Shown one piece after another: positions 997-45,910 of a DNA stretch of 64,000 nucleotides. The first letter of the stretch is position 1, and the number at the start of each line of letters is the position of its first letter. The notes below the pieces were generated by a model. That model was given only the letters and a program-made list of their open reading frames with translations. It was not told where the DNA came from and did not search any database. Source of the stretch: Pocillopora verrucosa (Eukaryota > Cnidaria > Anthozoa > Scleractinia > Pocilloporidae); assembly GCF_036669915.1 (NCBI RefSeq), contig NC_089315.1:1136503-1200502 (forward strand), read 5' to 3'. Made by a program: the position numbers and the translations under genes.

Positions 997-3150
997 ATGT
1001 TCCCTCAGTGGTTCAGGTTTGCTGTGGTTACTCTTATCAAACTGGTGCTGGTTTTTGGTCGACATAAAGTTGGAGCAGATTTCAGCGATAGCTGCGACAA
1101 CTCACCTAATTCCCTCTCATGCATCCACACGTATGAAGAGCTTTATAACAGCTTGGCAAAGTCAGAAAACAGTTTTAACATTGAGTCAGCTATATATCCA
1201 TCGAGGAGGCCTTCTTCTGTCCGTGTGTTTGTAAATTTACATGGTCCTAACGAGGCAGAAAACCTCATCGTGCCCTACACTTGGAGCCTTTCCTGTTTGT
1301 ATGTTGCTGTCCCACCACTCATGCTGGAAGTTTTGTCCCTCGGATCCATCCTTGTGACGCCTCGGACTCAAACACTGAATATAACTATTCCATATTTCTG
1401 CTGCAATGTGTCAAAGAAGGAGAATGAAAGAAGGACAATAGTTAAAGAAAGGATTAAAAGAGCTCTCGCATCAGTAAGTGTGTTGTTTTCTCCCTTAATT
1501 TGGAAACAACAGGAAACTGATTAGAAGAGCTGCCTTCAGCACTCTTAGTCCTCCGTTAGTTAGCAAGTATGCAGAAATGAAAAGAAAATAAACGCTATTA
1601 TTTGGTTGGCAATAAGGTACACGGACGTTCCCCTATTGTAAATTTAAACAGCTTTTGGTCCTGAATTATTCTAAAGGTGTTTCGAGTACGTGACGTTAAT
1701 AATTGTCTTAGCTGAAGTCTACTGCTAAAAAATCTTTTGAGCCAAGCAACCCACACTTTCAAGTTTCCCTGAAAGTTTGCGGGCCGGTACTCTTCAATAT
1801 TCCTTGGTGGAAAAAGGCATTGCTTAACTCACTAACAACCGTCTCTCAGCTATTGACCATCCTTTGAAGTTTATACAATTTTGATATACGATTGCTGGTA
1901 CATTTCAGCTTCAAGATCTTGCCGTATCACCAGGGATACGGGATCCAAGGACGAACACAGCGGAATGTGTTATCGAAGGCCACGGAATAGACTCAAGGGC
2001 TACAGGACGCAGTGTGTATATCAGAACAATCCATTGGTGTTCATTTCTTTTCGCTGTTGTAGTTTCCCATATGTTAACTTCATTTCTTCATCATTGCAGA
2101 AAAGAAGGTTGGCCAGAGAAAACCCCAGGCAAAAGGCTCGCAGGCAGGCGAGACAGGCAAAAGATTAGGATAAAAAATACTGCTAAGGCTATCTTCTATC
2201 TAGGTCTTTTGTTATCGATACTTGGTTTAAGTCAACAATTGATACTCCTTTTCCTTTTTGTAAATTTTTACCAGGAAGAAGTTCTTCTTTACTGGGACAT
2301 TGCAACTATTTTACTCTCTCTCTGGGTGGCAATGGCATTCAATACAGTGATTGGCCTAATACCACATATCCGTAATAAATTAGAAAATTATTTTCCATGG
2401 CTGAAGACAGACTCGGCTGACAGGGGAGAAGGCATGAGCTGTTTTTCTAAACCGGTCGCCTTTACATGTGCAGCCACCACTAGTTTCTGTTCCTGTTGGA
2501 TGCTAATTGGCATAATGCTTAACCCGACTTGGGGTTTGACTGTTGCGCTTATGATATGCTTTACTTTTGCCTCCTTCACTTATGCTGTCTACGAATATCT
2601 TACTTTAGTTAGCTGTAAACAAGATGGAGTGAAACCCGATAAACTGCATGCTCTATTACCTGGTCTGTTGGGTTTCCTTGCTGTTATTGTCTTAATTCCA
2701 GTAATTGTGTTCGCCGGCCAGTCATTTAATGGAAGAGAAACTGCGGATGAAACATTGAAGACCATACTTATGACTGCTCTTGGTTCCTTCGTTTCGTGGT
2801 TGTCTTGGAAGAGGCTTCTGGACAAAAGCCAAAAGTCAGAAGAGAAACAAACCCAACTCCCATCCAGTGACCCAAGGCGGACGCCTTCTGACGTCGTTAC
2901 GGATACTGACTCAAGGCAATTTTCATTCAGCGATTCATCAACTTCTTACACCTCAAGTCAGAATTCTTTATATCATACATGTCCTTGCCTATGTCATCCA
3001 CCAGTAAACGATCACAATACGGCGGAAAGTCAGTCCTCAAACGATGGTTTATTTATAGAAAAAAGCCAAGCATGTTGCAGAATGGTGCTAAGTGGTAAAA
3101 ATATCAAATTTAACGAGAAACAAAGGAATGACATAGAGAGCAAAGTGTAG
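997..3150 (+). CDS. Gene A1: signal peptide, cysteine ectodomain and about 7 TM helices (unrecognised family)
   Basis: Coding exons are 997-1473 and 1909-3150, joined in phase 0 (TCA|gtaagt; acatttcag|CTT), giving 572 aa. Exon 1 has a hydrophobic N-terminus (about residues 1-26), then an ectodomain with the core KSENSFNIESA, an LSCLY motif and a CC pair. Exon 2 starts LQDLAV and has seven hydrophobic segments, with GIMLNPTWGL between TM4 and TM5 and AGQSFNGRETADE after TM6. The tail is Ser/Thr-rich with a cysteine cluster CPCLC. Basic loops fall on the cytoplasmic side if the N-terminus is outside. I do not recognise the family; a membrane receptor or channel-like role is only a guess. The start is the first ATG giving a signal peptide. 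An out-of-frame ATG lies upstream at 944. The intron is shorter (435 bp) than in the second A copy (584 bp). Confidence 0.82.
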
Positions 3151-4768
3151 CAAAATCTGAATTCGTCGGCTTAAAACTCGGTCTCCATGTGGAATACCAC
3201 TTTTATTTGCAATCGACTTCTTAAATTACGATTTGTAGGGTCAAAGAAGATATTTGAATCGGTTTGCAGAGTTTGAAATGTCAAAATAGTAATGAAATGG
3301 CGGGAAAAACTATTTCCTACTGCTTCTCTTATAACATACGTTGAGTAACCACTCGTCTGGAAACTCATACATTTAACAAAAGGTAGAAAGATTTCGAGAC
3401 TTCAATGAAATCAATTGCATCACGAGGAACTAAGCACAGTGCCATAAGTGGCAATGGCGGTTGTGTGTTGGGAATATGCCATTATTAAGGAAATGTATCA
3501 ACTAAATATTTTTCCAACAGTGGGGTTGTTACTGGAAGAACAATCTGTCGAGGAGATTTTTAATAACAAGAGAAGAGGCAAGATTTTTTCATGTTTAAGA
3601 TAACTCTGCTCAGGAGCACGAGCGAAATGGCTGTACTGTTTTAGTACTTTTTGTTGTACAAATATAGATAGAGTCTAGCTGTGGATCTGAGAAGGAGTCA
3701 TTTTCTTCATTGAGGAAGTTTTCCATAAGAGCTTTTTCCAAGATGTTCTCGAGGCCAAATACCATGGAACACACGAGTTCTCTACTGTTGATAGGTGACT
3801 CACCTACATTTAACTGACAGGAATTATTTTTTACTGATGTGATCAGTTATGATAAATTCAATCTTGTATTACCTTGATTACATTGGAAATCTAGTTAAAT
3901 AACGTTAGGATCTATTGCTCTCTAAAAAACTTGTAAAACTAAAAACAAATTGAGTGTTCGTCCTCAAGTCAACGTGAAAATGAATCACCTTGCATTTGCT
4001 CAAAATTATATTTAGACATCATTAACAATAGCTGACCCGTGGCTGCAGTTGTCACGACATCATTATCAACTTGTAAACAATGGATACTAAAAACATCGCT
4101 CGACTTGTAAGTCAAATCATGTGGAAACGTTCAGCCTATTAATCGGTAAGGTAAATTTCTCATGATATCAGCCTTCCCCATAAGCCTCGAGCTCAATTAT
4201 CGACCGGACCGGATAGCCATAAAAGATCAGGCATATTATTTATTTGAACCGTTAAAGAATTAAGAAATATAAGTGTAAGAGTTTATAAGTTTACAACTTC
4301 CGTTTTCTTTCGGAGCAATCTAGTGTGACTTATTTCCATTGACACCCAAGTAAGTGATCTGTGGTCGTTCAACTCCTATAGTCACAGGCTTAAATTTGGA
4401 TATCTCATTTTGGTTTCGTTTCACTTGAAGGTGGCAAAACAGAAAAGGCATTAAAAGAATATCATAAAACAGAACATCAAACATGAAGAGTACAAAAACG
4501 TACCATTCAACAAGAAATACATATATCATAAAATAGGAACCATCCGAACTAAATGTATCAACTCGGAGGCTATGAACTAAATTAAGTGTCACTCAGCTGC
4601 TTTGATGATAAGCGATACATTTATGAAGATGGTATAACATCTTACGCTTATGGACAAATTTGAAGATGCAACGTCACGGCACATCTATACCGGCCCACCT
4701 TAATAATTCAGCGCTTCAATGTAATATTTCTACTGAACGATGTGACGTCACGCCACAGTTGTGTCAGC
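3151..4768. other. 3' flank of gene A1, no gene
   Basis: No convincing gene is seen. The segment from about 3310 to 4420 is homologous to the DNA upstream of B-type genes (about 17.4-18.2, 24.85-25.75 and 41.55-42.43 kb), which ties the A and B units to a common ancestral array. The same region is duplicated at 30639-32228. Confidence 0.6.
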
Positions 4769-5305
4769 TTACATCTTGCAAGTTTCACAGGCACAGTCTA
4801 GTTCATGAGTCCATGTTAGAGCTGCCTCATGATGACTTTTAAAATAATCAACCACGGTTTTACCATTCCTTACAAACCATATAAATGGTAACTTACATCT
4901 TAACACCTTTTTATAAGGACTAAAAAGCTTGTAAGACATTCTAAGTTGCCAAGCTCTTGTTTTCTTAACTCTACAATTCGAATCAACCCAATCATCGAGG
5001 CTACCAGAAACTCGATACATACTCATTTCCTCTTGAAACTTTTCAAAGGCTCGACTAAGGCACATTCCATATACGAATGCATTCTGAATAACATAGTTTT
5101 CGACAGTCCTAAAGCAGTCATAACAATACAACTTCATCCAATAGTCAGCAAATAACCGGACATTGTCGTTCATGTAGGCCATATTTTGGTAATAAAACCC
5201 GTTGATGATTTTTACGTTGATATCTCTTTTATAGCCAGTGTCATTCATATCTTCTAAATCCAAATCATGCACCAAATCGGTTAAACCAGTTTTACTCTCA
5301 GCCAT
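4769..5305 (-). CDS. Single-exon ORF of 178 aa, unrecognised
   Basis: An ATG-started open frame on the strand opposite the receptor array. The protein begins MAESKTGLTDLVHDL, has no signal peptide or membrane segment, is rich in aromatic residues in the middle (NGFYYQN, YWMKLYCYDCF), and ends with a cysteine group CACETCKM. I do not recognise a family. The copy at 32229-32765 has the same length and differs by about seven residues, with few silent changes, so the pair gives no clear sign of purifying selection. It occurs only in the A-type units. It could be a real small gene, a domesticated mobile-element ORF or a decaying relic. Confidence 0.5.
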   Translation of the reverse strand: MAESKTGLTDLVHDLDLEDMNDTGYKRDINVKIINGFYYQNMAYMNDNVRLFADYWMKLYCYDCFRTVENYVIQNAFVYGMCLSRAFEKFQEEMSMYRVSGSLDDWVDSNCRVKKTRAWQLRMSYKLFSPYKKVLRCKLPFIWFVRNGKTVVDYFKSHHEAALTWTHELDCACETCKM

Positions 5306-6976
5306 TTTTAAAATTAAATTAATTTATGACCTTCTAAATATACCAAGCCCAAGCTTCAGCTGTGTGATGATCATCTTGCTAAGAGTCATGGCGAAACTAT
5401 AAGAGTTTGGATGGGAATATTTACGACCGCTCTTAGAAATGAAAAATACAGTCAAATTCTCAATAAAAATACCTCACCTTACTTCCACAGTGCATCGCTT
5501 GTTATCTGACCGCTTACTATATTAAAAAGAACCCATTTCGGCGAGTTATCCATTTCTAAAAGCCTGTGGTAAACTTAGAAACACCTGGAGCTTGGGCCGC
5601 CTGCAAACATCATTTACTGAGATTGGTTGAAAAAAATCACGAGACAGTCGTATGACCATCATTCCACTTTAAAAACAATAGAGCAAGTTCAGACCTGTTA
5701 GCGGGCAACCCCCTATTTTGTTTCCGAGTATTTGACTAATTATTCAGATGCACTCTATCCGTTCAACCCTGCTGGTCGCAGCCGTCAAAGTGGGAATATT
5801 GTTCCTGCGTTTCTTGTCAGTGTCATCGAGCAGATTTCTGTGTCAAAACTCAATCCTACTTCGTAACTCACAAAAAAGGTATTTCCAACATATACCATGA
5901 TTTTTTTAAGTGAGTAAGCTCGTCTTAAAGCTCAAATAGCGATAACATAACACAGACCCAGTATAGTAAATCGAACGCAATCGAACTGAATTTCAATTAG
6001 ATATTATTATATATGTAAAACAATGGAAAAATGTTTCCTCGACTCTAAATGTCTAAGAAATAATTGTCCCTTCATCAATTGTTCATTTTTCTGGTAAATT
6101 AGTTAAGAGTATCTGATATTGTATCTAAATAGCAACCAGTCTTGCGGCTAAACAAATCTTTTCCTTTTTCACTGAGTCCGGGATAATGTTATGATATTGT
6201 AAGGTGAAGTTATTCCTTAATCACAAATTTTACATGCTGTATAACAGTTCAAGCTAACGATATTATTAAGTATGATTCTAATCATTATACACCTGAGTAC
6301 AGCACTGTTTATTAAAAAACTATAATCTCAGTAGTTATCTTGTGCCAAAACAGGTTTGGATTTTTTAATTTACATCTCCAATGTAGCGTTGTAGTTCTGG
6401 ATGCATTTTATATAAATTCATCACTTGGAAAGATTTTTCAACTCTATATAAAAAACTGTAATGTGCGTGCAAAGAGGATAACAAGCCAACTTTTAAATAG
6501 TGCTTTCGTTCAGATTTGAGTTTACATAGGTGGCTGTTCCTACAGTACATGGCACCCTTAAGAAACTGAAATTTTTCTGGTTTAAAAATTGAAAAAGTTC
6601 GTCATATCTGGTGGTCTGGAACGAACACAGATGAACTTTGCCCCAACAGCCTCTTTGAAGACAAGTGAGTAATACTAGGAGGGGGGGGGGTCTATCAGTT
6701 TATAAAATATCTCCTTTTAAGTATTGTGTCCATTTTATTTTTTCTCTACCAAATTAAAGCTGTCAAGGTTTTTCAGGTATTTTACTACATAACTGATCTT
6801 GCAAGAGCTTTCACATGCACCAAGTCTTACTGAAAGCACTGCCAAATACAAAGACCTCAAATTGTACCTTTTTTAAGTGCCCTATCCTATACAATGTATC
6901 AATTAATTAATCTTGTAGCAGTATGATTACTACAAAATATGACTTAATAAATAAATTCAGACTTCTCAACATGTTT
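5306..6976. other. Inter-unit DNA, no gene
   Basis: No gene is seen. From about 5990 onward the sequence is homologous to the 3' flanks of the B genes (for example from 21515), so the A unit ends in B-type tail DNA that leads into a PHPT1 exon 3 relic. A G tract lies near 6682. Confidence 0.55.
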
Positions 6977-7072
6977 CTAATAACCCTTATTGGAGAAGGT
7001 AATACTTTCAAAATCTGGGTAAGCTTTTATAAGTTTCTCGACTGCGATGGAGTGATCTGCTCTACCAAACCC
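6977..7072 (-). pseudogene. PHPT1: PHPT1 exon 3 relic, copy 1 (open)
   Basis: On the minus strand a splice acceptor (ttccag) is followed by 96 nt encoding GFGRADHSIAVEKLIKAYP and ending SNKGY-stop. This matches exon 3 of the complete gene at 47122-47217. No exon 2 or exon 1 lies behind it in this unit, because the unit is fused directly to the next B-gene upstream region near 7270. It is a headless 3' fragment carried along by tandem duplication. The frame is intact, though it differs from the parent at several residues. Confidence 0.75.
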
Positions 7073-8452
7073 CTGGAAATTAAAAATAAATATTTCAGAA
7101 AGTCAGTCATAGCAGAGAAAACCATGTGTCACTAATAATTACTTATTACCAACAGACTGACATATGCTTGCCTAAAGGTCAGTGTATTGAGGGGTCTGGG
7201 TTGAATTCATTCCCGAGCCATAGTTTAGTGTTCCTTAGCAGATTGTTTCACTCTCACAAGTCCTCTCACCACCCTAATAAACTTGTAAAACTAAAAAAAA
7301 ATTGAGTGTTCGTCCTCAAGTCGTTGGTTTGTAAGTCAGATCGTTTGGTTTGTAAGTCTTCTTTACAGGGAAGGTACTCTCCACCTGTTTCATAACATTT
7401 TTCTTTTAGTTGTAAGCATGTCGTCCACCTACCAAAAATTCAAAGACGATCAGGGTTAGGAGAGTTTGTTTATTACCTGAAAGGTTTGCTGACACAAGTT
7501 TAGTTATGAAAAAGCCCTACATTTCAAATTTATTAGACGCAATATAAGATTTCGATGTCTAAAATTTAATGTTTTTGCGAGGTCTTAGTGACTAGAATTA
7601 GTGATTCCGTGGTCATCTGTGATAACCGCGAGAGATAAAATTAGGACAGTCAAGCCTACGATAAGCCATTAGTCGTTAGGAGGGTTTAGGTAAGAAGTTA
7701 AGCTGTTTCCAGCGCTGATTTTTTCCCTTAAATGTTTATATCAAAAGGAATTGATTTCAAACTTTGATTAGTTGAGGCTTTATTCAGAATGGCAAACGAT
7801 AGAAGCTTACAGATACGGATTATTGGAGTTAGACCTTGCTATTTCATGGAAACCGGAAGTATCATGAACGTGTTCTTTTATTTACATCCAGCCGATATAC
7901 TAAGTATTTGGCCGAGCCAAAATGTAAAGAATTGTACCACAAATCACTGCAGATAAACTGTTGCCAACAACCTTCCCACAAGCGTTACGATCATTTAAGC
8001 CACATCGTAGCTAGTTTCTCCACATTAATTCGCGAGAAATCCTCTACTGATTCTTCTTGAATATATTCAATGTTGAAAGAAAGGCATTCAGTATTCGTTT
8101 CAAAGCCTCGTTTCACCCAAGAATATAAACGAGTACCATAGCACTATCAAGGACTAACTTTTTTATGTGCTGGGTGATTTTCTGCGATGGACTTGCGTCC
8201 TTTCCACATGGAGTGGCAATATACTAACTTGACACTTCATGCTATATGGAAACTGTGATAACCTCTAGCAATAATCTAAGCGAGTTCCGCTCATAAAATA
8301 TTGTGTTTTGACAGCTAACAGGAAATAACCAGCCTCAAAAAGTAAAAGTGGATCAAACAAAGCTGATTTGTATTCATTCCGCTTCTCTTGCAGGAAATTT
8401 TGGAACTGGTCAAGGGATTCAAAGCTCTTAGAATCTCCACTGTTTTTCAAGG
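7073..8452. other. Unit junction and upstream region of gene B1
   Basis: Near 7257-7280 the PHPT1-derived flank is joined directly to B-upstream DNA. The same join is present at 34715-34740, so it predates the block duplication. The rest is the upstream region shared by all B genes. A short open frame at 7836-8060 recurs in other units but is disrupted differently in each, so I do not call it a gene. Confidence 0.5.
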
Positions 8453-10555
8453 ATGGCATTTTTGCGAATCGATCTCAAATTTCTGGTCTTAATTCAAGTT
8501 ATGATAATACACCTATTTCCAAAACACATGTCTCAAGCAACAGCTACCAATAACTGTACAACTGCGGTCAATTCAACTGATGCCTGTAACAAAATCACTT
8601 ACGAACAAGTTTACAACATCTTGACGAAATCAGAAAACAGTTTCAACATCGAGTCGGCTCTTTATCCACCCAAGAGGCCTTCCTCAGTTCGTGTGTTTGT
8701 AAATGTCTATGGCCCCAACAAAACGGAAAGTTCAACTCCTGCTGCCAAATACACGTGGAGTATTTCTTGCCTGTACGCTGCTCTTCCTGCTAAAGTTCTT
8801 GAATTTTGGTCCTTATGGTCAATCATGGTGACCAGTCGAACACAGGAGCTTAACATAACAATTTCACTTTCCTGCTGTGATGTGACGAAAGGGAAACTAA
8901 AAAAACACATCGAAGACGCTCTAGCTGCTGTAAGTACTTTGACCAATTTAGATTATGTGCCAAAATAGCAAAAGAATTCTTATTGAACATTAAAAACCGA
9001 TCAGGAAAAAACAGTGCACTCTTAACCTTGTAAACATCTTCTCCGAAAAGAATTGAAAGTAGAGTTGTTACTTCAGTTATAATAACTTCATCTATGGAAC
9101 TGAAAATGTTAGTACCCCTTGGAAAATGAGAAATTCGGATAGGTACGATTTTGGACTACGTCCCCACCCCTCTCCCCTCTCCTCGTCTAAATTTGTTAAT
9201 TAACATCTTCGTTCTAGTCTCTCCCACAAACTGTAGGTCACTTAAATGAACGCAAAAAGCTAAAACAGTTCAAAAGAATTGTCTTTGAAGTCCATGAACA
9301 GAAACGCAACGATTCTCTAAAGTGGAGATAAAATTTCCATCTTTGCGGAGAGAGTGATTCATATTTCCTTTATTCGAGTTGTTTGGCAAATTGTGCCAGA
9401 GTCAGGGAGATTCGTGTATGTTCCCAGAAACTTATAGCTTATTCGGCAGAGTTGGCTTGTAAGTTGGGCATGTACACTGTTATTACGACCATGAACCCAT
9501 GACTTGGTACTAGTCATACCAAAAGGGATTCATTGTTCTGTGTTTTAAATATTTTTTAAAACCTTCCAATATCCCATAGCTTATCACTTCTTTTTCGCTT
9601 ACTCTTTTAGAATCATCCTTTTCTTTGATTTGACTTAGTTCTGTCTTATGTTTCATAGCTCCAAGATCTGGCTGTTAGGCCAGCAATGAGAGACCCCCAA
9701 CTGAATTCTGCTGAGTGTATCACAGAGGGACATCAACCAAATATTTCTTCTGTTACAGAACACAGTTGGCGAATAATATTAATTTTAGTCCTCTCTTTCC
9801 TCTTTTCGATAGTGTCTGGGCCATTGTTGGCCTTTATAACAATGAAGAAACGGGATGAGCTCAAAAATGAGGGGGAATGGGAGTCAAAAGTTAAGAAAAA
9901 TTCGATAGATTTCCTTTGTGGATTTTTGTTAGTAATATTTGTTGCTATATATATAGCAAAAGTGGTAATAGTTTATGGATATAGCAGCGGTGAGAAAATT
10001 GTTCCAATTAACATGTATGCTGTTTTTGTAGCAATACAACCAATCATTGTGTTTGTTGGGATTATAGTCTTTTGTATGACATTATATTGCTGTGGGGAAG
10101 ACCAGGAAAGACAACAACAACAAGAACAACAACAAGAACTTCCAATGGAGGACATTGTAAAGAAGAAGTCATTCTTTTTCATAATTTGTGCAAATTTAGC
10201 AACCTACCATTTTTGTTGGCTCTTAGTTGGTATAATGCTGAATCCTATCTGGGGTCTCGTTGTTCTGCTCGTACTTTGCCTTTTTATTGGTGTCTCAACC
10301 TTTGCATTTTATACCTACAAGTCTCCAGTCCCTCAAGGGGAAAACCCCCCCAAAAAAAGTCTGTTATTTTCCTCATGTTTTGCTAGGTTCCTAGCCATCT
10401 GTGTTCTTATTGTTATTGTGATTCTAGCTGGGCAGTCATATAATGGAAGACAAACTGCTGATGAAGCTTTGAAAGAAGCAGTGATGTATTTAATCTCTAT
10501 ATTCTTTTCATGGCTCTATTGGAAGGGGTACTGGCTTAGATCTGCTGATCATTAA
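8453..10555 (+). CDS. Gene B1: signal peptide, cysteine ectodomain and about 7 TM helices
   Basis: Coding exons are 8453-8929 and 9659-10555, joined in phase 0 (GCT|gtaagt; tttcatag|CTC), giving 457 aa. A signal peptide covers about residues 1-28. The ectodomain has cysteines before ITYEQVYN, in ISCLYAALP and as a CC pair, plus several N-x-S/T sites. Exon 2 has hydrophobic segments at roughly 198-220, 243-266, 280-303, 331-352, 357-378, 400-418 and 430-448. Signature motifs are GIMLNPIWGL and AGQSYNGRQTADEALK. The TM3-TM4 loop is Gln-rich. The tail stops early (LRSADH): gene B4 has GAA where B1 has TAA, so B1 has lost about 11 tail residues. Function is unknown. Confidence 0.82.
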
Positions 10556-11598
10556 AGTGGTCATCTTCTGAATGAACTAGCGTAAAAGAAATGCAAACAC
10601 TTGTGTCTTAAGATGCTCCAATCCTTTCATTTGGATATTATTGTACATGTAAACCAATGGAAAAATTTTTTCTGGACTCACCCTAAGCATCTGAGTAATA
10701 ACTAACCCTTCATTAATTGCTCATTTTCTGGTAAATTAATGAAGAGTATTTGGTATTGTATCAAAATAGTAGCTGGTCTTATGGCTAAACTTATCTTTTC
10801 CTTTTTCCCTAAGTGCTTGATGATGTAATGATATTGTAAGGTGAAGTTTTTCCTTAGTCACAAATTTTACATGCTGTATAACAGTTCATGCAAATGATAT
10901 AATTAAGTAAGATCCTAATCATTACACACCTAACTTAATTTGAAGAAGTACACCACTGTTTATTAAAATTATAATCTCAGTTACTATCTTGTGCTAAAAC
11001 AGGTTTGGAAAGCAAACCTTAGCAACCTATTGTATAAATTTAACTAACCTTAGTTTGCATAACTTGGTACCAATGAAGCCCAAACTAGCTAACTGGCGAA
11101 ATGTTTACCACCAAGGTAAATAATATTTGTGCCTTTCAAAGTCTATAATTTTTTTGTTCTCATATACAGGTTTCAATTTGTTTACATCTCCAATGTAGCA
11201 TTGTAGTTCTGGATGCATTTTATAAAAATTCATTACGTGGAAAAATTTCTAAATCTATATAAAAAACTGTTAGTAATATGTATGCATAGAGGATAACTAG
11301 CCAATGGTAAACAGTGCTTTCATTAAGATTTGAGGTTACATAGGTGGCTGTCCCTACATGGCACCTTTAAGAAACTGAAATTGTTCTGGTTTAAAAATGG
11401 AAAAAGTTCGTCATATCTGGTGGTCTGCAACAGAACACTGAGTTGGGAGGGGGTCCATCAGTTTATAAAACATCTCCTTTTATGTATTGTGTCAATTTTA
11501 TTTTTTCTTTAGTGAATTAAAGCTGTCAAGATTTTTTCAGGTATTTTGCTACACAACTAACCTTGCAAGGCTCTCACAAGGCTCTTACCAAGTCTTTA
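10556..11598. other. 3' flank of gene B1, no gene
   Basis: Probable 3' untranslated and flanking DNA. It is closest to the flank of gene B4 (45911 onward), including a shared stretch around aatgcaaacacttgtgtc. No gene is seen. Confidence 0.5.
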
Positions 11599-11619
11599 CC
11601 CTTGCGAAATGGCTTTTGG

Positions 11620-19316: not shown

Positions 19317-21500
19317 ATGGCATTTTTGCGAATCGATCTCAAATTTCTCGTCTTAATTCAAGTTGTGATAATACACCTATTTCCAAAACACATGTCCCAA
19401 GCAACAGCTACCAATAACTGTACAAGTGCAGTCAGTCCAACTGATGCCTGTAACAAAATCACTTACGAACAAGTTTACAACATCTTGGCGAAATCAGAAA
19501 ACAGTTTCAACATCGAGTCGGCTCTTTATCCACCCAAGAGGCCTTCCTCAGTGCGGGTATTTGTAAATGTCTATGGCCCCAACAAAACGGAAAGTTCAAC
19601 TCCTGCTGCCAAATACACGTGGAGTATTTCTTGCCTGTACGCTGCTCTTCCTGCTAAAGTTCTTGAATTTTGGTCTTTATGGTCAATCATGGTGACCAGT
19701 CGAACACAGGAGCTTAACATAACAATTTCACTTTCCTGCTGTGATGTGACGAAAGGGAAACTAAAAAAACATATCGAAGACGCTCTAGCTGCTGTAAGTA
19801 CTTTGACCAATTTAGATTATGTACCGAAATAGCAAAAATATTCCAATTGAACATTAAAAAACCAATCAGGAAAAAACATTGCACCTTAAACCTTGTTAAC
19901 ATCTTCTCCGAAAAGAACTGAAAGTAAAGTTGTTAGTTCAGTTATTATAACTTCATCCATGGAACTGAAAATGTTAGTACCCCTTGGAAAATGAGAAATT
20001 CGGATAGGTACGATTTTGGACCACGTCCCCACCCCTCTCCGCTCTCCTCGTCTAAATTTGTTTATTAGCATCTTTGTTCCGATATCTCCTTCAAACTGGA
20101 AGTCACTTAAATGAAAACAAATATCAAATTCAAATCCGTTAAAAAGAATTGTCTTTAAAGTCCATGAACAGAAACGCGACGATTCTCTAAAGTGGAGAAA
20201 AAAATTTTCTTGCCTCTCCATCTTTGCGGAGATAGTGGTTCATATTTCCTTTTTTCGAGTTGTTTGGCAAACTATGCTAGAGTCAGGGATATTCGTGTGT
20301 TTTCCCTAAGACTTATGGCTTATTCGAGAGAGTTGGCATGTATGCTGGGCATGTACACTGTTATTATGACCAAGAACCCATGACTTGGTGCTGGACATAC
20401 CAACAGGGATTCATTGTTCTGTGTTTTTAAATATTTTTCCAAACCTTCCATTATCCCATAGCTCATCTTCACTTCTTTTTCGCTTACTCTTTTAGAATCA
20501 TCTTTTTGTTTGATTTGACTTAGTTCTTTCTTATGTTTCATAGTTCCAAGATCTGGCTATTAGGCCAGCAATGAGAGACCCCCAACTGAATTCTGCTGAG
20601 TGTATCACAGAGGGACATCAACCGAGTATTTCCTCTGTTACAGAACACAGTTGGCGAATAAGATTAATTTTAATCCTCTCCTCTCTCTTTTCAATAGTGT
20701 TTGGGCCATTGTTGGCCTTTACAACAACGAGAAAACAGGACGAGCTCGGAAAAAAGGACAACAATAGAAAAAATACGGTAGATTTCCTGTGTGTGTTTTT
20801 GTTTGTAATAATCACTGTTTTAATTATAGCAAGATATGTAACAGTCCATACAAGTAGCAGCGATAAGAAAATGGTTCCTTATTATATGTTCCCTATTATT
20901 GAACTGATACAACCGGCCATTGTGCTTGCTGGGGTAATCGTCTTTTTGGTGACATGGGTGAAATGTGGGGGTAGCGACCAGAATAACTATAGTGTAAAGG
21001 TGAAGTCACTTCTTTTCATAATTTGTGCAAATTTAGCAACCTACCATTTTTGTTGGCTCTTAGTCGGTATAATGCTGAATCCTATCTGGGGTCTTGTTGT
21101 TCTGCTCGTACTTTGCCTTTTTATTGGTATCTCAACCTTTGCATTTTATACCTACATGTCTTCAAATGACGCCTCAAAATGTCAGTCATTTTCTTCATGT
21201 TTTGCTGGGTTCCTAGCTGTCTGTGGTCTTATTGTTATTGTAATTCTAGCTGGGCAGTCATATAATGGAAGACAAACTGCTGATGAGGCTTTGAAAGAAG
21301 CAGTGATGTATTTAATCTCTATATTCTTTTCATGGCTCTATTGGAAGAGGTGGGTTAATAAAAGTAAGAAATCTGCAGATTGCAAAAGTGGTCCTGTTTC
21401 GGCTCCTAACTCATCACAAGAAAATGGTCATGTTCCAGAGCACAGTGGAACAGAAATGGAAACACTTATGCAGCAAGATGTTCGAAACATTACAGTGTAA
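19317..21500 (+). CDS. Gene B2: signal peptide, cysteine ectodomain and about 7 TM helices
   Basis: Coding exons are 19317-19793 and 20544-21500, phase 0, giving 477 aa. The ectodomain is almost identical to that of B1 and B3. Exon 2 is more diverged in the first three membrane segments and has a short TM3-TM4 loop (CGGSDQNNYSVKVKS) instead of the Gln-rich loop of B1. The tail is long (RWVNKSKKSADCKSG through METLMQQDV) and ends in VRNITV. Signature motifs GIMLNPIWGL and AGQSYNGRQTADEALK are kept. No disabling change is seen. Function is unknown; the family call rests on comparison within the window. Confidence 0.82.
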
Positions 21501-23125: not shown

Positions 23126-23182
23126 GTACTCTCTCCACCCAGGAACAAGATGTCAAGAATAGGTTCTGACAAACTTCACGCC

Positions 23183-28335: not shown

Positions 28336-30638
28336 ATGTCTCCTCAGTGGTTCAGGTTTACTGTGGTAACTCTTATCAAACTGGTGCTGGTTTTTGGTCG
28401 ACATAATGTTGGAGCAGATTTCAGCGATAACTGTGACAACTCGCCTAATTCCCTCTCATGCATCCACACGTATGAAGAGCTTTATAACAGCTTGGCAAAG
28501 TCAGAAAACAGTTTTAACATTGAGTCAGCTATATATCCATCCAGGAGGCCTTCTTCTGTCCGTGTGTTTGTAAATTTACATGGTCCTAACGAGGCAGAAA
28601 ACCTCATCGTGCCATACACTTGGAGCCTTTCCTGTTTGTATGTTGCTGTTCCACCACTCATGCTGGAAGTTTTGTCCCTCGGATCCATCCTTGTGACGCC
28701 TCGGACTCAAACACTGAATATAACTATTCCATATTTCTGCTGTAATGTGTCAAAGAAGGAGGATGAAAGAAGGACAATAATTAAAGAAAGGATTAAAAGA
28801 GCTCTTGCATCGGTAAGTGTATTGTTTTCTCCCTTAATTTGGAAACAACAGGAAACTGATTAAAAGAGCTGCCTTCAGTACTCTTATTCCTCCATTAGTT
28901 AGCAAGTATGCAGAAATGAAAAGAAAATAAAAGCTATTATTTGGTTGGCAATAAGGTACACGGACGTTCCCCTAAACGAAACAGCTTTTGGTCCTGAATT
29001 ATTCTAAAGGTGTTTCGAGTAGGCAACGTTAGTAATTGTCTTAGCTGAAGTCTACTGCTAAAAAGGCGAAGTCTTTTGAGCCAAGCAATCCACACTTTCC
29101 ATATATTGAAGACTGGTTGCGAGTTAATCGCATGATTTATAATTAGCACCTTGTCAAGTTTCCCTGAAAGTTTGCGGGCCGGTACTCATCAATATTCCTT
29201 GGCGGAAAAAAGGCATTGCTTAACTCACTAACAACCGTCTCTCAGCTACTGACCATCCTTTCCCGTACGGGCCTGAATTTTTTTAAGGTCCTATTTACAA
29301 CTACTTGTTTTAGTAGTGTTCTTAGCTGCGAGGATCTCTTAATTTCATCCTTTGAAGTTTATACAATTTTGATACAGGATTGCTGTTACATTTCAGCTTC
29401 AAGATCTGGCCGTATCACCAGGGATACGGGATCCAAGGATGAACACAGCGGAATGTGTTATCGAAGGCCACGGAATAGACATAGAGGCTACAGGACGCAG
29501 TGTGTACATCAAAGTAATCCATTGGTGTTCATTTCTTTTCACTTTGGCAGTTTTCTATTTGTTAACTTCATTTATTGAACATTGTAGAAAAGAAGGTTGG
29601 CCAGAGAAAACCACAGGGAGGGAACACACGAATACAACCGGCCGAGACAGGCAAAAGATCAGGATAAAAAATACTGTTAAGGCTATCTTCTATCTAGGTC
29701 TTTTGTTGTCAGTTCTTGGTTTAAGTCAACAATTGGTGCTCCTTTTACTTTTTGTAAATTTTTACCTGGAAGAAGTTCTCCTTTACAAGGACATTGTACC
29801 TATTTTAGTCTGTATCTGGTTTGCATTCAATACAGTGATTGGCCTAATACCACATATCCGTAAGAAATTAGAAAATTATTTTCCATGGCTGAAGACAGAC
29901 TCGGCTGACAGGGGAGAAGGTATGAGCTGTTTTTCTAAACCGGTCGCCTATACATGTGCAGCCACCACTAGTTTCTGTTCCTGTTGGATGCTAATTGGCA
30001 TAATGCTTAACCCGACTTGGGGCTTGACTGTTGCGTTTATAATATGCTTTACTTTTGCCTCCTTCACTTATGCTGTCTACGAATATCTCACTTTAGTTAG
30101 CTGTAAACAAGATGGAGTGAAACCCGATAAACTGCATGCCCTATTACCTGGTCTTTTGGGTTTCCTTGCTGTTATTGTCTTAATTCCAGAAATTGTGTTC
30201 GCCGGCCAGTCATTTAATGGAAGAGAAACTGCGGATGAAACATTGAAGACCATAGTTATGACTGCTCTTTGTTCCTTCATTTCGTGGTTGTCTTGGAAGA
30301 GGCTTCTGGACAAAAGCCAAAAGTCAGAGGAGAAACAAACCCAACTCCCATCCAGTGACCCAAGGCGGACGCCTTCTGACGTCGTTACGGATACTGACTC
30401 AAGGCAATTTTCATTCAGCGATTCATCAACTTATTACACCTCAAGTCAGAATTCTTTATATCATACATGTCCTTGCCTATGTCATCCACCAGTAAACGAT
30501 CACAATACGGCGGAAAGCCAGTCCTCAAACGATGGTTCATTTATAGAAGAAAGCCAAGCATGTTGCAGAATGGTGCTAAGTGGTGAAAATATCGAATTTA
30601 ACGAGAAACAAAGGAACGACATAGAGAGCAAAGTGTAG
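28336..30638 (+). CDS. Gene A2: signal peptide, cysteine ectodomain and about 7 TM helices
   Basis: Coding exons are 28336-28812 and 29397-30638, joined in phase 0 (TCG|gtaagt; acatttcag|CTT), giving 572 aa, the same length as A1. The ectodomain is nearly identical to A1. In exon 2 the region after TM1 differs most (TTGREHTNTTGRDRQK against a KRLAGRR version in A1), and a few membrane residues differ. Motifs GIMLNPTWGL and AGQSFNGRETADE and the Ser/Thr-rich tail with CPCLC are present. An ATG inside exon 2 (29439) is not the start; the frame is continuous from the acceptor. Function is unknown. Confidence 0.82.
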
Positions 30639-34441: not shown

Positions 34442-34527
34442 CTAATAACGAAGGTCATACTTTCATAATCTGGGTAAGCTTTTATAAGTTTCTCGACTGC
34501 GATGGAGTGATCAGCTCTACCAAACCC
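34442..34527 (-). pseudogene. PHPT1: PHPT1 exon 3 relic, copy 4, frameshifted
   Basis: It matches exon 3 but lacks 10 nt near the end, where the parent encodes the residues before EGY-stop, so the final residues are lost. The span is 86 nt where the other copies have 96. The acceptor and the GFGRAD start are kept. Confidence 0.7.
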
Positions 34528-35907: not shown

Positions 35908-38106
35908 ATGGCATTTTTGCGAATCGATCTCAAATTTCTCGTCTTAATTCAAGTTATGATAATACACTTATTTCCAAAACACATGTCTCAAGCAACAGCT
36001 ACCAATAACTGTACAACTGCGGTCAATTCAACTGATGCCTGTAACAAAATCACTTACGAACAAGTTTACAACATCTTGGCGAAATCAGAAAACAGTTTCA
36101 ACATCGAGTCGGCTCTTTATCCACCCAAGAGGCCTTCCTCAGTTCGTGTGTTTGTAAATGTCTATGGCCCCAAAAAAACGGAAAATTCAACTCCTGCTGC
36201 CAAATACACGTGGAGTATTTCTTGCCTGTACGCTGCTCTTCCTGCTAAAGTTCTTGAATTTTGGTCTTTATGGTCAATCATGGTGACCAGTCGAACACAG
36301 GAGCTTAACATAACAATTTCACTTTCCTGCTGTGATGTGACGAAAGGGAAACTAAAAAAACACATCGAAGACGCTCTAGCTGCTGTAAGTACTTTGACCA
36401 ATTTAGATTATGTGCCAAAATAGCAAAAGAGTTCTTATTGAACATTAAAAACCGATCAGGAAAAAACATTGCACTCTTAACCTTGTAAACATCTTCTCCG
36501 AAAAGAATTGAAAGTAGAGTTGTTACTTCAGTTATTATAACTTCATCTATGGAACTGAAAATGTTAGTACCCCTTGGAAAATGAGAAATTCGGATAGGTA
36601 CGATTTTGGACTTCGTCCCCACCCCTCTCCCCTCTCCTCGTCTAAATTTGTTAATTAACATCTTCGTTCTAGTCTCTCCCACAAACTGTAGGTCACTTAA
36701 ATGAACGCAAAACGCTAAAACAGTTCAAAAGAATTGTCTTTGAAGTCCATGAACAGAAACGCAACGATTCTCTAAAGTGGAGATAAAATTTCCATCTTTG
36801 CGGAGAGAGTGATTCATATTTCCTTTATTCGAGTTGTTTGGCAAATTGTGCCAGAGTCAGGGAGATTCGTGTATGTTCCCAGAAACTTATAGCTTATTCG
36901 GCAGAGTTGGCGTGTAAGTTGGGCATGTACACTGTTATTACGACCATGAACCCATGACTTGGTACTAGTCATACCAAAAGGGATTCATTGTTCTGTGTTT
37001 TAAATATTTTTTAAAACCTTCCAATACCCCATAGCTTATCACTTCTTTTTCGCTTACTCTTTTAGAATCATCCTTTTCTTTGATTTGACTTAGTTCTGTC
37101 TTATGTTTCATAGCTCCAAGATCTGGCTGTTAGGCCAGCAATGAGAGACCCCCAACTGAATTCTGCTGAGTGTATCACAGAGGGACATCAACCAAATATT
37201 TCTTCTGTTACAGAACACAGTTGGCGAATAATAGTAATTTTAGTCCTCTCTTTCCTCTTTTCGATAGTGTCTGGGCCATTGTTGGCCTTTATAACAACGA
37301 AAAAACGGGATGAGCTCAGAAATGAGGGAGATAGGAAGTCAAAAGCTAAGAAAAATTCGATAGATTTCCTTTGTGGGTTTTTGTTAGTAATATTTGTTGC
37401 TATATATATAGCAAAAGTGGCAATAGTTTATGGATATAGCAGCGGTGAGAAAATTGTTCCAATTAACATGTATGCTGTTTTTGTAGCAATACAACCAATC
37501 ATTGTGTTTGTTGGGATTATAGTCTCTTGTATGACATTATATTGCTGTGGGGAAGACCAGGAAAGACAACAACAACATGGACATCCAATGCAGGACATTG
37601 TAAAGAAGAAGTCATTCTTTTTCATAATTTGTGCAAATTTAGCAACCTATCATTTTTGTTGGCTCGTAGTTGGTATAATGCTGAATCCTATCTGGGGTCT
37701 CGTTGTTCTGCTCGTACTTTGCCTTTTTATTGGTGTCTCAACCTTTGCATTTTATACCTACATATATTCAGTCCCTCAAGGGAAAAACCTTAAAAAAAAA
37801 TGTCTGTTATTTTCCTCATGTTTTGCTGGGTTCCTGGCCATCTGTGTTCTTATTGTTATTGTGATTCTAGCTGGGCAGTCATATAATGGAAGACAAACTG
37901 CTGATGAAGCTTTGAAAGAAGCAGTGATGTATTTAATCTCTATATTCTTTTCATGGCTCTATTGGAAGAGGTGGGTTAATAAAAGTAAGAAATCTGCAGA
38001 TTGCAAAAGTGGTCCTGTTTCGGCTCCTAACTCATCACAAGAAAATGGTCATGCTCCAGAGCACAGTGGAACAGAAATGGAAACACTTATGCAGCAAGAT
38101 GTTTGA
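35908..38106 (+). CDS. Gene B3: signal peptide, cysteine ectodomain and about 7 TM helices (B1/B2 mosaic)
   Basis: Coding exons are 35908-36384 and 37114-38106, phase 0, giving 489 aa. From the upstream region through TM6 it follows B1 (for example the loop CGEDQERQQQHGHPMQD against the longer Gln loop of B1). After about 37909-37969 it switches to the B2 type: RWVNKSKKSADCKSG tail ending METLMQQDV, then the B2-like 3' flank. Its tail ends at a TGA where B2 reads CGA and continues for five more residues. Signature motifs are intact. No disabling mutation is seen. Function is unknown. Confidence 0.82.
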
Positions 38107-39729: not shown

Positions 39730-39786
39730 GTACTCTCTCTACCCAGGAACAAGATGTCAAGAATAGGTTCTGACAAACTTCACTCC

Positions 39787-41260: not shown

Positions 41261-43527
41261 CTGAAAGAAAGACGTGGGACGAAATTATTTAAAATATTCA
41301 ATAATACAACACAGGCTTTTATACACTGGTCAGTCGCATCACTGACGACAATCAACAGGAAAATGGACAAAATAATAAACAACAAGCAAAATGAACATCA
41401 CTTCACGCCCAAACTCCTGAGTTAAACATAATCAAATCGGATCATACGATCTATTGAAATTTCTTTGTAGTTAAAGTCTTTGTGGTGTTGTTAGAAACCA
41501 ACACTGCACAAGTGATAAATTTTCTCAAGTTCACGACTACGGTCTCTTATGACATACGTTGAGTAACCAGTCGTGTCTGGAAACTCGTACATTTAACAAC
41601 TGACTGAAAGATTTCGTGTTTTCATGTTTAAAATGAATCTGTTCAGGAACACGAGCGAAATGGCTGTACTGTTGTGCTACTTTTTGTTTTACAAATATAG
41701 ACTGAGTCTAGCTGCGGGTCTAAGAAGGAGTCATTTTCTTCGTTGAGGAAGTTTTTTATATTAGGTTTTCCTAGATATTACTGTTCTTGGGGCTAAATAC
41801 GCGACTGAAAAAACTAAACTGACAGGAATTATTTTGTACTGATGTGATCAGTTATGATAGATTTAATTTTGTATTACCCTGATTGCATTGCAAATCTAGT
41901 TAAATAACGTTTGGATACATTGCTCTCTAATAAGCTTGTAAAACTCAAAACAAATTGAGTATTCGTCTTCAAGTCGAAGTGAGAATGAATCAGCTTGCAT
42001 TTGCTCGAGAATGTAATAAAATCATTCACAATAGCTGACCTGTGGCTACACTTGTCATAACACCCTTATCAACTTGTAAACACTGGATACTAAAAATATC
42101 GCTTGACTTGTAAGTCAAATCATGAAGAGGCTTTCAGCTTATTTATCGGTAAGGTAAATTTCTCATGATATCAGTTTTCTCCATTAGCCTTGAGCTCAAT
42201 TATCGAGTAGATAGCTATTAAAGATCAGGTTTATTACTAATTTAAACCGTTAAAGAATTAAGAAATATAAGTTTATGAGTTTACAGTTTACAATTTCCGT
42301 TTTCTTTCGGAGTAATCTAGCGTGACCTATTTAAATTTATGCCCGAGTAAGCGATCTGCGGTCGTTGGACTCCCGTCGTCACAGGCTTAAATTAAAATTT
42401 TGGATATCTCAATTTGGTGTCGTTTCACTTGATCGTTTGGTTTGGAAGTCTTCTCTACAGGGAAGGTACTCTTCACCTGTTTCATAACATTTTTCATTAG
42501 TGATAAGCTTGTAGTCCGCCTACCAAAAAGCAAAGACGATCAGGGTTAAGAGAGTTTGTTTATTACCTGAAAGGTTTGCTGACACAAGTTTAGCCATGAA
42601 AGAGCCTTGCATTTCAAATTTATTAGACGCAATATGAGATTTCGATGTCTAAAATTTAGTCTTAGTTAATAGAATTAGTGATTCCGTGGTCATCTGTGAT
42701 AACCACGAGAGATAAAATTAAGACAGTCGAGCTTACAATAAGCCATTAGTCGTTACATCAGGAGGGTTTAGGTAAGAAGTTAAGCTGTTTCCGGCGCTGA
42801 TTGTTTTCCTTCAATGTCTACATCAAAAGAAATTGATTTGAAATTTTTATTAGTAGAGGCTTTATTTAGAATGGCAAACGATAGAAGCTTAGACACGAAT
42901 TACTGGAGTTAGATATTGTTATTTCCCGGAAACCGGAAGTATCGTGAACGTGTCCTTTTATTTACATCCAGCCGATATACTAAGTATTTAGCCGAGCCAA
43001 AATGTAGGGACTTTTACCACAAATTACTGCAGATAAACTGTTGCCAACAACCTTTTCGCAAACGATCTTTTAAGCCACATTGTAGCTATAGTTTCTCTAC
43101 ATAAATTCGCGAGCCTCTACAGATTCTTCTTGAATATATTCACTGTTGAAAGAAAAGCATTCAGTATTCGTTTTAAAGCCCCGTTTCACCCAGGAATATA
43201 AATGGGTACCATAACACTCTCAGGGACTAGCTTTTTTATGTGCAGGGTGATTTTCTGAGATGGACTTGAGTCATGTCCACAGGGAGTAGCAATATACTAA
43301 CTCGACACTTTATGCTATATGGAAACTGTGATAAACTCTAACGGTAATCTAAGCGAGTTTCGCTTGTAAAATATTGTGTTTTGACAGCTTACATGGAATA
43401 ACCAGCCTCAAAAAGTATACGTGGATCAAATAAAGCTGATTTGTATTCATACCGCTTCTCTTGCAGGATATTTTTCAACTAGCCTAGGGATTCTATTAGC
43501 TATTAGAATCTCCACTGTTTGTCAAGG
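41261..43527. other. Unit boundary and upstream region of gene B4
   Basis: PHPT1 intron-1-derived DNA gives way near 41540 to the shared upstream region. It is the closest relative of the orphan region at 24603-26828. No gene is seen. Confidence 0.5.
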
Positions 43528-45178
43528 ATGGCATTTTTGCAATTCGATCTTACAATTCTCGTCCTCATCCAAGTTATGATAATACACTTATTTCCAAAAC
43601 ACATGTCCCAAGCAACAGTCACCAATAACTGTACAAGTGCTGTCAATCCAATTGACGCCTGTAACAAAATCACCTACGAACAAGTTTACAACATCTTGGC
43701 GAAATCAGAAAACAGTTTCAACATCGAGTCGGCTCTTTATCCACCCAACGGAGACCTTCCTCAGTGCGTGTATTTGTAAATGTCTATGGCCCCAACAAAA
43801 CGGAAAGTTCAACTCCTGCTGCTAAGTACACGTGGAGTATTTCTTGCCTGTACGCTGCTCTTCCTGCTAAAGTTCTTGAATTTTGGTCTTTATGGTCAAT
43901 CATGGTGACCAGTCGAACACAGGAGCTTAACATAACAATTTCACTTTCCTACTGTGATGTGACGAAAGGGAAACTAAAAAAACACATCGAAGACGCTCTA
44001 GCTTCTGTAAGTACTCTGACCAATTTAGATTATGTACCGAAATAGCAAAAATATTCTAATTGAACATTAAAAACCAATCAGGAAAAAACATTGCACTCTA
44101 AACCTTGTAAACATCTGCTCCGGAAAGAATTGAAAGTAGAGTTGTTACTTCAGTCACCATAACTTCATCCGTGGAACTGAAAATGTTAGTACCCTTTGGA
44201 AAATGAAAATCTGGAAATGTACGCTTTTGGACCACATTCCCACCCCTCTCCACTGCCCTCATCTAAATTTGTTAATTAACATCTTTGTTCCAATCTCTTT
44301 TACAAACTGGAAGTCACTCAAATGAACGCAAATATCAAAAATTGAAAAACGGCAAAAAGAATTGTCCTTGAAGTCCATGAACAGAAACGCAACGATTCTC
44401 TAAAGTGAAGATAAAATTTTCTTGCCTTTCCATCTTTGCGGAGCGTGTGATTCATATTTCCTTTATTCGAGTTATTTTGCAAACTGTGCCAGAGTCAGGG
44501 AGATTCTTGTCTTTTCCCAGACACCTACGGCTTATTCGGGAGAAGAGTTGGCATGTATGCTGGGCATGTACACTGCTATTATGACCAAGGACCCATGACT
44601 TGGTACTAGTCATACCAAAAGGGATTCATTGTTCTATTTTAAATATTTTTCAAAACATTCCAATGCCCCATAGCTCAACTTCACTTCTTTTTCGCTTACT
44701 CGTTTAGAATCATCTTTTTGGTTGATTTAACTTAGTTCTGTCTTATGTTTCATAGCTTCAAGATCTGGCTGTCAGTCCAGCAATAAGGGACCCCCAACTG
44801 AATTCTGCTGAATGTATCACAGAGGGACATCAACCAAATATTTCTTCTGTTACAGAACATAGTCGGCGAATAATATTCATTTTAGTCCTCTCTTTTCTCT
44901 GTTCAATAGTGTTTGGACCATTGTTGGCCTTTACAACAACGAAAAAACGGGGCGAGCTCGAAGAAGAGGAGAAAAATACGATAGATTTCCTTTGTAAGGG
45001 TTTGTTGTTAGTACTTGTTGGCCTATACATAGCAAAAATGGTAACAGTCCATACAAGCAGCAGCGATGAGAAAATTGTTCCTTATTACATGAATTGTATT
45101 GTTAACGCGATACAACCAGTCATTATGGTTGTTGGGATTATTGTCTTTGGGGTGACATTTTATCTCTATGGGGGAAAA

Positions 45179-45418
45179 CAAGAAGAACAACAAGAAGGAC
45201 AACAAGAAGGACAACAAGAAGGACAACAAGAAGGACAACAAGAAGGACAACAAGAAGGACAACAAGAAGGACAACAAGAAGGACAACAAGTAGGACAACA
45301 AGAAGGACAACAAGAAGGACAACAAGAAGGACAACAAGAAGGACAACAAGAAGGACAACAAGAAGGACAACAAGAAGGACAACAAGAAGGACAACAAGAA
45401 GGACAACAAGAAGGACAT
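45179..45418 (+). repeat. 20-unit, 12-bp coding minisatellite (QEGQ)
   Basis: Twenty in-frame copies of caagaaggacaa encode QEGQ; the variants are QEEQ first, one QVGQ and QEGH last. It lies in the predicted cytoplasmic loop between TM3 and TM4 of gene B4. The corresponding loop is Gln-rich in B1 and B3 and absent in B2. Confidence 0.9.
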
Positions 45419-45436
45419 CAACTACTACATCCAAGG

Positions 45437-45484
45437 GAGGAAATTGTAGAGGAAATTGTAGAGGAAATTGTAGAGGAAATTGTA
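45437..45484 (+). repeat. 4-unit, 12-bp coding repeat (EEIV)
   Basis: Four perfect copies of gaggaaattgta encode EEIV, just after the QEGQ array. The other B genes have a single DIV or no counterpart here. Confidence 0.9.
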
Positions 45485-45910
45485 GAGAAGAAGTCATTCC
45501 TTTTCATAATTTGTGCTAATTTAGCAACCTACCATTTTTGTTGGCTCTTAGTCGGTATAATGCTGGATCCTATCTGGGGTCTTGTTGTTCTGCTCCTACT
45601 TTGCCTTGCTATTGGTGTCTCATCCTTTGCATTTTATACCTACAAGTCTTCAATTACTCCTGAAAACGACTGCTGCAACACAAAATGTCAGTTATTGTCC
45701 TCAAGTGTTGCTGGGTTTCTAGCTGTCTGTGGTCTTATTGCTGTTGTAGTTCTAGCTGGGCAGTCATACAATGGAAGACAAACTGCTGATGAAGCTTTGA
45801 AAGAAGCAGTGATGTATTTAATCTCTATCTCCTTCTCATGGCTCTATTGGAAGGGGTGGCTTAGATCTGCTGATCGTGAAAGGGGTCATCAGGCAGCTGA
45901 ACAAGTGTAA

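What the first reader, a model, noticed from the sequence alone, without database searches (positions are those of the whole stretch)
997..45910. Tandem array of an unrecognised two-exon, seven-helix membrane protein family
Six genes share one plan: a 477-nt exon with a signal peptide and cysteine ectodomain, a phase-0 intron, and an exon with about seven hydrophobic segments. Two signatures, GIMLNP-x-WGL and AGQS-x-NGR-x-TADE-x-LK, hold across types A and B while other parts diverge. Basic loops and charged tails fall on one side, consistent with N-terminus out and C-terminus in, a receptor-like topology. I know no characterised family with these motifs. A clustered, fast-duplicating surface protein in a cnidarian could serve sensing, immunity or self-recognition, but that is inference.
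Basis: partly seen in the sequence, partly recalled or inferred. Interest (0 to 1): 0.82.

Follow-up and report, generated by a model that had tools for sequence, protein, structure and literature searches.

The report
Stony-coral seven-pass surface protein array
A cluster of six duplicated coral genes encodes proteins predicted to cross the membrane seven times that match no named family; their outer parts stay much the same between copies while membrane and inner parts vary and seem to have been swapped.

Summary
The window, from Pocillopora or a close relative (inferred), carries six tandem two-exon genes, all on the + strand (A1, B1, B2, A2, B3, B4). Five are intact; B4 has a 2-nt insertion in exon 1. 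Each intact gene has a 477-nt exon 1 (putative signal peptide, cysteine ectodomain), a phase-0 intron and an exon 2 with seven predicted helices. Splicing is supported by 11 homologous proteins read without break from short contigs. No Pfam, PDB-sequence or structure match was convincing. Of 145 homologues 24 carry an organism name, all stony corals.

New here: (1) conservation lies in the ectodomain, the stalk, the NP turn and the AGQSxxGRxTADE loop; inner loops and tail are not conserved, unlike a classical G-protein receptor. (2) Between B copies TM1-3 is more divergent (73-79% DNA identity) than the adjacent intron (89-90%), while exon 1 is 94-97% identical. (3) B3 is a mosaic of B1 and B2, switching inside the TM7 block. 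The A/B pair appears older than the Stylophora-Oculina split.

Best reading: a stony-coral-restricted, receptor-like surface family with a fixed outer face and interchangeable membrane/cytoplasmic modules. Function is inferred (0.45). Ectodomain-based self-recognition is not supported.

The parts
997..1473 (+). A1 exon 1: putative signal peptide + cysteine alpha/beta ectodomain (477 nt)
   Evidence: open frame, GTAAGT donor; 94% identical over 157 aa to Pocillopora damicornis pdam_00023378
1909..3150 (+). A1 exon 2: stalk, seven TM helices, tail of about 112 residues
   Evidence: CAG acceptor, phase 0; Stylophora LOC111339455 reads through the same junction, 77% identity over 486 aa
8453..8929 (+). 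B1 exon 1
9659..10555 (+). B1 exon 2 (short tail GYWLRSADH)
19317..19793 (+). B2 exon 1
20544..21500 (+). B2 exon 2
28336..28812 (+). A2 exon 1
29397..30638 (+). A2 exon 2
35908..36384 (+). B3 exon 1
37114..38106 (+). B3 exon 2; mosaic, B1-like before and B2-like after the switch
37908..37969 (+). B1/B2 switch point in B3, inside the conserved TM7 block
   Evidence: left of it B3=B1 at 248 sites, B3=B2 at 27, neither at 5; right of it B3=B2 at 147 and B3=B1 at 7
43528..44006 (+). B4 exon 1, frame broken by a 2-nt insertion, one Cys lost
44756..45910 (+). B4 exon 2 with a long QEGQ repeat in the TM3-TM4 loop
24601..26834 (+). B-type 5' flank (97.1% to 41295-43530) with no B gene after it: likely remnant of a lost copy
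   Evidence: no coding match here
1..11596 (.). A1-B1 block, matched by 27339-39127 in two pieces at 94.6% and 94.1% identity

Best explanation
These genes encode a stony-coral-restricted family of seven-pass membrane proteins of the secretory pathway, most likely at the cell surface, with N-terminus outside and C-terminus inside (structure and topology predicted; restriction shown only for records that carry a name). I think they work as receptor-like sensors. The ectodomain, the stalk, the NP turn between TM4 and TM5 and the AGQSxxGRxTADE loop between TM6 and TM7 form one conserved outer surface that meets the same ligand or partner in all copies. TM1-3 with its short outer loop, the inner loops and the tail differ from copy to copy and give each copy its own membrane partner or output (inferred). 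The array evolves by block duplication and by crossing-over or conversion inside conserved blocks, which keeps exon 1 and TM7 alike and exchanges the modules between them (seen in B3 and in homologue P0006, barring assembly error).
For: Seven helices and ectodomain in two models. Columns above 3 bits: ectodomain 51/131, stalk 21/33, TM4-5 turn 2/3, TM6-7 loop 9/11; ICL1 0/12, ICL2 0/9, ICL3 1/23, tail 1/34. TM1-3 more divergent than the adjacent intron in 7 of 7 pairs, Fisher p from 2.5e-3 to 2.6e-12. dN/dS of exon 1 is 0.18-0.29 in A1-A2, B1-B2, B1-B3 and B2-B3; of TM1-3 0.95-1.18 in the six B pairs and 0.65 in A1-A2. B3 mosaic; P0006 has B1-class TM1-3 (92-93%) with B4-class TM4-7 (98%). A and B clades each hold window, Stylophora and Oculina members. 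Related proteins in Acropora, Montipora and Porites. 14 of the 50 rows in the structural second look of the better model are GPCR chains, though weak.
Confidence: 0.45

Rival explanations
1. An ion channel, transporter or auxiliary subunit: the conserved outer hairpins (TM4-NP-TM5, TM6-AGQS...TADE-TM7, with His in TM4 and Lys in TM7) line a pore or a substrate site, and the ectodomain gates or assembles it.
Confidence: 0.25
2. A secretory-pathway helper (cargo receptor or chaperone, working like GOST or Wntless proteins, recalled) whose lumenal face binds cargo.
For: Ectodomain plus seven helices with a conserved lumenal side and variable cytosolic side.
Against: No such Pfam domain in the complete lists for 8 homologues. 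Lineage restriction and copy-number growth fit less well with a housekeeping helper.
Confidence: 0.13
3. A self-recognition or immune receptor whose variable ectodomain tells self from non-self.
For: Tandem array, duplication and recombination; coral tandem families are enriched in receptors (PMC10236652, section 13).
Against: Exon 1 is among the least variable parts between copies. Allelic variation was not testable.
Confidence: 0.09
4. Drifting duplicates: TM1-3 and tail are simply relaxed, some copies are dying, and no special modular function exists.
For: B4 is frame-shifted and repeat-invaded; dN/dS is near 1 in TM1-3 of B pairs.
Against: Low dN/dS of exon 1; dS in TM1-3 is itself raised (0.23-0.39 between B classes against intron divergence of about 10-11%), which relaxed constraint alone does not give; five of six frames are intact; family present in six named coral genera.
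Confidence: 0.08

Closest known systems
Rhodopsin-like and other GPCR families amplified in corals (PMC10236652)
   Same: seven helices, probably N-out/C-in, tandem amplification in corals
   Different: no 7tm Pfam match in the complete lists for 8 homologues; conserved parts are outer, not cytoplasmic
Uncharacterised stony-coral proteins (e.g. Stylophora LOC111339455/LOC111339459, Oculina ACROYT_G004075/G004076)
   Same: members of this family; 21 of 24 named homologues align across the junction
   Different: none: these are the family; the names seen give no function apart from 'MARVEL domain-containing' for P0001
GOST / Wntless / TMEM87-type lumenal-domain seven-pass proteins (recalled)
   Same: lumenal domain followed by seven helices
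   Different: no sequence match or confident fold match here; ectodomain could not be compared alone
MARVEL-domain proteins (UniRef name of P0001)
   Same: only the name given to P0001
   Different: seven helices and an ectodomain; no MARVEL Pfam match for P0001
Dark orthogroups of stony corals (PMC13044578)
   Same: lineage-restricted, unannotated, often membrane proteins
   Different: I saw only passages and section 10; whether this family is among them was not checked

Membership tests
G-protein-coupled receptors | match to a 7tm/Frizzled/secretin Pfam family | tested here: not met
   complete lists at E<=1 for 8 homologues and for 3 window exon-2 frames hold none; the 25 families shown of 42 for 33 members hold none
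G-protein-coupled receptors | seven helices, N-out, C-in | tested here: inconclusive
   seven helices in both models; orientation rests on a putative signal peptide and a modest charge bias
G-protein-coupled receptors | conserved cytoplasmic coupling surface | tested here: not met
   inner loops and tail 2 conserved columns of 78 (0/12, 0/9, 1/23, 1/34)
G-protein-coupled receptors | GPCR fold | tested here: inconclusive
G-protein-coupled receptors | G-protein activation | not testable with these tools
   needs assay
MARVEL proteins | match to the MARVEL domain family | tested here: not met
   none in 8 homologues including P0001, the protein so named
SpoIIM / DUF95 | score above the Pfam cut-off | tested here: not met
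   22.3 bits against 26.9, in B1 exon 2 only among the five stretches scanned; P0004 carries a precomputed PF01944 tag
GOST / Wntless-type | lumenal domain fold plus seven helices | tested here: inconclusive
   not among the listed rows, but the ectodomain was not searched by itself
Stony-coral uncharacterised two-exon seven-pass family | same plan, motifs and splice junction | tested here: met

The most novel reading that the evidence does not exclude
A receptor superfamily born in stony corals, with its own ectodomain and seven-helix fold, in which one fixed outward face is combined with interchangeable TM1-3 and cytoplasmic modules by recombination within gene arrays: one input, many outputs. 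It could serve a coral-specific task such as symbiosis or skeleton-surface sensing.
Probability: 0.2. Interest if true: 0.8.

Novelty: new variant of a known kind. Interest (0 to 1): 0.55.

Why it matters
Corals carry many lineage-restricted membrane genes of unknown role (PMC13044578, passages). This one is coherent, multi-copy, named in Stylophora, Oculina, Pocillopora, Acropora, Montipora and Porites, constrained in its ectodomain and two outer hairpins, and has no named relative outside stony corals in the searches made. If it is a receptor, it would be a coral-specific signalling system with an unusual pattern, constant outside and variable inside, that can be tested by localisation, expression and ligand work.

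Tried and rejected
Pfam weak hits (SpoIIM, DUF1345, Steroid_dh, MFS_2 and others) are scattered: among the 25 of 42 families shown each matches one to five of 33 members, and wherever a cut-off was printed the score is below it. I take them as hydrophobic composition. PDB sequence search with B1 exon 2, the 16-row profile A3 and A1 exon 1 gave nothing below E 0.1; for A3 the best were yeast OST2 (0.1) and bacteriorhodopsin-I chains (0.53-1.3). NCBIfam: one weak hit among 4 proteins. Prokaryotic genomes, IMG/VR contigs and phage records: no relative. Foldseek: 0 of 134 (PDB, first model), 0 of 109 (PDB, second) and 0 of 155 (viral, second) matches at E<=0.001. VIA second look: TMEM16, 14-3-3, OSCA and insect-receptor rows of the weaker model are not among the 50 rows of the better model; that does not exclude them, but they were not pursued. 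Allelic duplication in the assembly was considered for the two A-B blocks: about 94% identity with uneven divergence and a B2-derived 3' end argues against it but does not exclude it. Literature: six text searches listed 13 papers in all, none about this family by title or start of abstract; two were opened in part. The six gene identifiers occur in none of the held main texts; supplements could not be searched. The genome search did not complete, so genome-wide copy number is unknown.
Full report
What is there. The window holds six tandem two-exon genes on the + strand: A1 (997-1473/1909-3150), B1 (8453-8929/9659-10555), B2 (19317-19793/20544-21500), A2 (28336-28812/29397-30638), B3 (35908-36384/37114-38106) and B4 (43528-44006/44756-45910). 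All donors are GTAAGT, all acceptors CAG or TAG, all introns phase 0. Five frames are intact (457-572 aa). B4 has a 2-nt insertion in exon 1, a lost cysteine and a long QEGQ repeat between TM3 and TM4. tblastn of the six proteins against the window finds these six pairs and nothing else.

Source organism. A1 exon 1 is 94% identical over 157 aa to Pocillopora damicornis pdam_00023378, and B3 is 63% identical to a Stylophora protein. The window is therefore from Pocillopora or a close relative (inference).

Are the splices real? Of 19 homologues whose source is lgn or jgi but not ena, 11 (P0010, P0016, P0018, P0019, P0025, P0035, P0045, P0055, P0075, P0079, P0141) align without break across the exon-1/exon-2 junction, all with a longest contig of 1,586-2,590 bases. 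P0121 instead runs on past exon 1, as unspliced DNA would. Of the 97 unnamed proteins with ena alone as source, 1 (P0124, not inspected) passes the same test, as expected if those were read from genomic DNA. I therefore read the 11 as transcript contigs; the tool does not say what lgn is. Of 24 named homologues 21 pass the test.

Who has it? Three protein searches gave 145 distinct proteins (74, 63 and 58 hits, overlapping). In the first two only the about 8,000 candidates sharing most words were scored. Of the 145, 24 carry an organism name, all stony corals: Stylophora, Oculina, Acropora, Montipora, Porites, Pocillopora. In the third search, restricted to 125 residues of P0034 that hold both signatures, only 279 candidates shared a word, and the 58 with E<=10 all have E of 1.7e-13 or lower. 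No relative was found in one genome for each of 84,980 prokaryote species, in IMG/VR or in phage records. The search needs shared five-residue words, so remote relatives in anemones are not excluded. A 40-row tree puts A1 and A2 with Stylophora LOC111339455 (99/100) and, in a starred clade of six (97/97), with Oculina G004076, whose model lacks most of the membrane part; B1-B4 group with Stylophora P0001 in a starred clade of nine (100/100) and, in one of 13 (100/100), with Oculina G004075. So the A-B neighbourhood probably predates the split of these corals.

Topology. N-out/C-in follows from a hydrophobic N-terminus after the Met (19-residue mean 1.6-2.1 in A1, B1, B2, B3, 1.33 in A2) plus seven helices. 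K+R counts favour it (inner loops and tail 4.7, 2.4, 3.3, 4.5; outer loops 0.8, 0.0, 1.0), but ICL3 was counted on 13 rows, inner loops are longer and about as acidic, and sequons (3.35 in exon 1 over 31 rows) are not much denser there than in ICL3 or tail. A hydrophobic stretch in exon 1 (family mean 1.53) scores above TM7 (1.45) yet is modelled inside the ectodomain.

Which parts are conserved? Columns above 3 bits number 51 of 131 in the ectodomain, 21 of 33 in the stalk, 2 of 3 in the TM4-5 turn (the NP of GIMxNPxWG), 9 of 11 in the TM6-7 loop (QSxxGRxTAD), but 1 of 7 in ECL1, and 0/12, 0/9, 1/23 and 1/34 in ICL1, ICL2, ICL3 and tail; helices TM1, TM4 and TM5 have 10/27, 12/23 and 8/24, TM6 and TM7 4/25 and 6/21, TM2 and TM3 1/24 and 1/22. 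Most exon-1 columns rest on about 29-34 rows, most exon-2 columns on about 120, so the ectodomain figure is somewhat inflated.

Where do copies differ? In DNA, B1-B2, B2-B3, B1-B4, B2-B4 and B3-B4 are 94.1-97.3% identical in exon 1, 89.0-90.0% in the intron, 73.2-78.5% in TM1-3, 83.5-91.2% in TM4-6 and 94.3-99.0% from ECL3 into TM7. TM1-3 exceeds the adjacent intron in divergence in all seven pairs tested, A1-A2 (88.3 against 95.1%) and B1-B3 (96.3 against 99.0%) included (Fisher p 2.5e-3 to 2.6e-12; sites are not independent, so p values are guides). In B1-B3 the TM4-6 part is lower still (93.8%). dN/dS in exon 1 is 0.18-0.29 in A1-A2, B1-B2, B1-B3 and B2-B3; in TM1-3 it is 0.95-1.18 in the six B pairs and 0.65 in A1-A2; in the A1-A2 stalk 1.71 on six changes. 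dS in TM1-3 is 0.23-0.39 between B classes; in the stalk it reaches 0.22-0.35 in pairs with B4, on few sites. A raised dS means that a segment is older than its flanks or comes from other copies, not only that constraint is relaxed. Amino-acid identity of five B classes is 81% in the stalk, 69% in TM1, 61% in ICL1, 37-55% from TM2 to ICL2, 80-84% in TM4-5, 43% in ICL3, 69% in TM6, 88% in ECL3, 98% in TM7 and 47% in the tail.

Recombination. Across the B3 locus, sites that distinguish B1 from B2 side with B1 (248 to 27, 5 neither) up to 37908 and with B2 (147 to 7) from 37969 on. The switch lies in the TM7 block; the 3' flank of B3 is 99.0% identical to that of B2 and 86.0% to that of B1. The unnamed homologue P0006 has TM1-3 of the B1 class (92-93%) and TM4-7 of the B4 class (98%, against 80% to B1 and B3). 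The A1-B1 block recurs as A2-B3 at about 94%. Unequal crossing-over inside conserved blocks explains both the block duplication and the module exchange. Chimaeric assembly is the caveat.

Mechanism. Shown: gene structure, restriction among named records, constraint pattern, mosaic sequence. Predicted: seven helices, topology, cysteine ectodomain. Inferred: surface location and receptor-like work, with one outer partner for all copies and copy-specific membrane or inner partners. The conserved ectodomain makes ectodomain-based self-recognition unlikely, and the unconserved inner side makes a shared G-protein interface unlikely; channel and secretory-helper roles remain open.

Known literature. 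Coral genomes are rich in tandem duplicates, with amplified families mostly receptors, adhesion and signalling proteins, 34 of 192 rhodopsin-like (PMC10236652; passages and section 13 seen). Many conserved dark coral orthogroups are membrane-associated, 115 of 161 with any assignment (PMC13044578; passages and section 10 seen). What I saw of them does not describe this family; supplements could not be read. Six text searches found no paper on it (the other listed papers were seen as listing only).

Noticed in passing
4769-5323 (-) and 32229-32783 (-): A 184-aa open frame opposite in strand, between A and B genes, duplicated with the block; no Pfam match and no PDB match below E 0.4 for the first copy.
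   Followed up: partly
24601-26834: A B-type upstream region, 97.1% like that of B4, with no gene after it: likely remnant of a lost seventh copy.
   Followed up: partly
about 45165-45410: A (QEGQ)n minisatellite inside the TM3-TM4 loop of B4; long frames are open there on both strands.
   Followed up: no
47522-47911 (+): GIY-YIG-like open frame (E 0.0029, below cut-off), perhaps a mobile-element fragment such as a Penelope-like element (recalled).
   Followed up: no
58937-61014 (-): Three exon-like frames each with a Death domain match, one above the Pfam cut-off and two below: likely a multi-Death-domain gene.
   Followed up: no
52495-54447 (-): Protein with WD40-repeat matches in its C-terminal half.
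   Followed up: partly
49720-50145 (-): Janus/Ocnus family match (E 2.3e-10), a phosphohistidine-phosphatase-like exon (function recalled).
   Followed up: no
P0006 (unnamed homologue): Natural-looking chimaera of B1-class TM1-3 and B4-class TM4-7 on a 5,984-base contig.
   Followed up: partly
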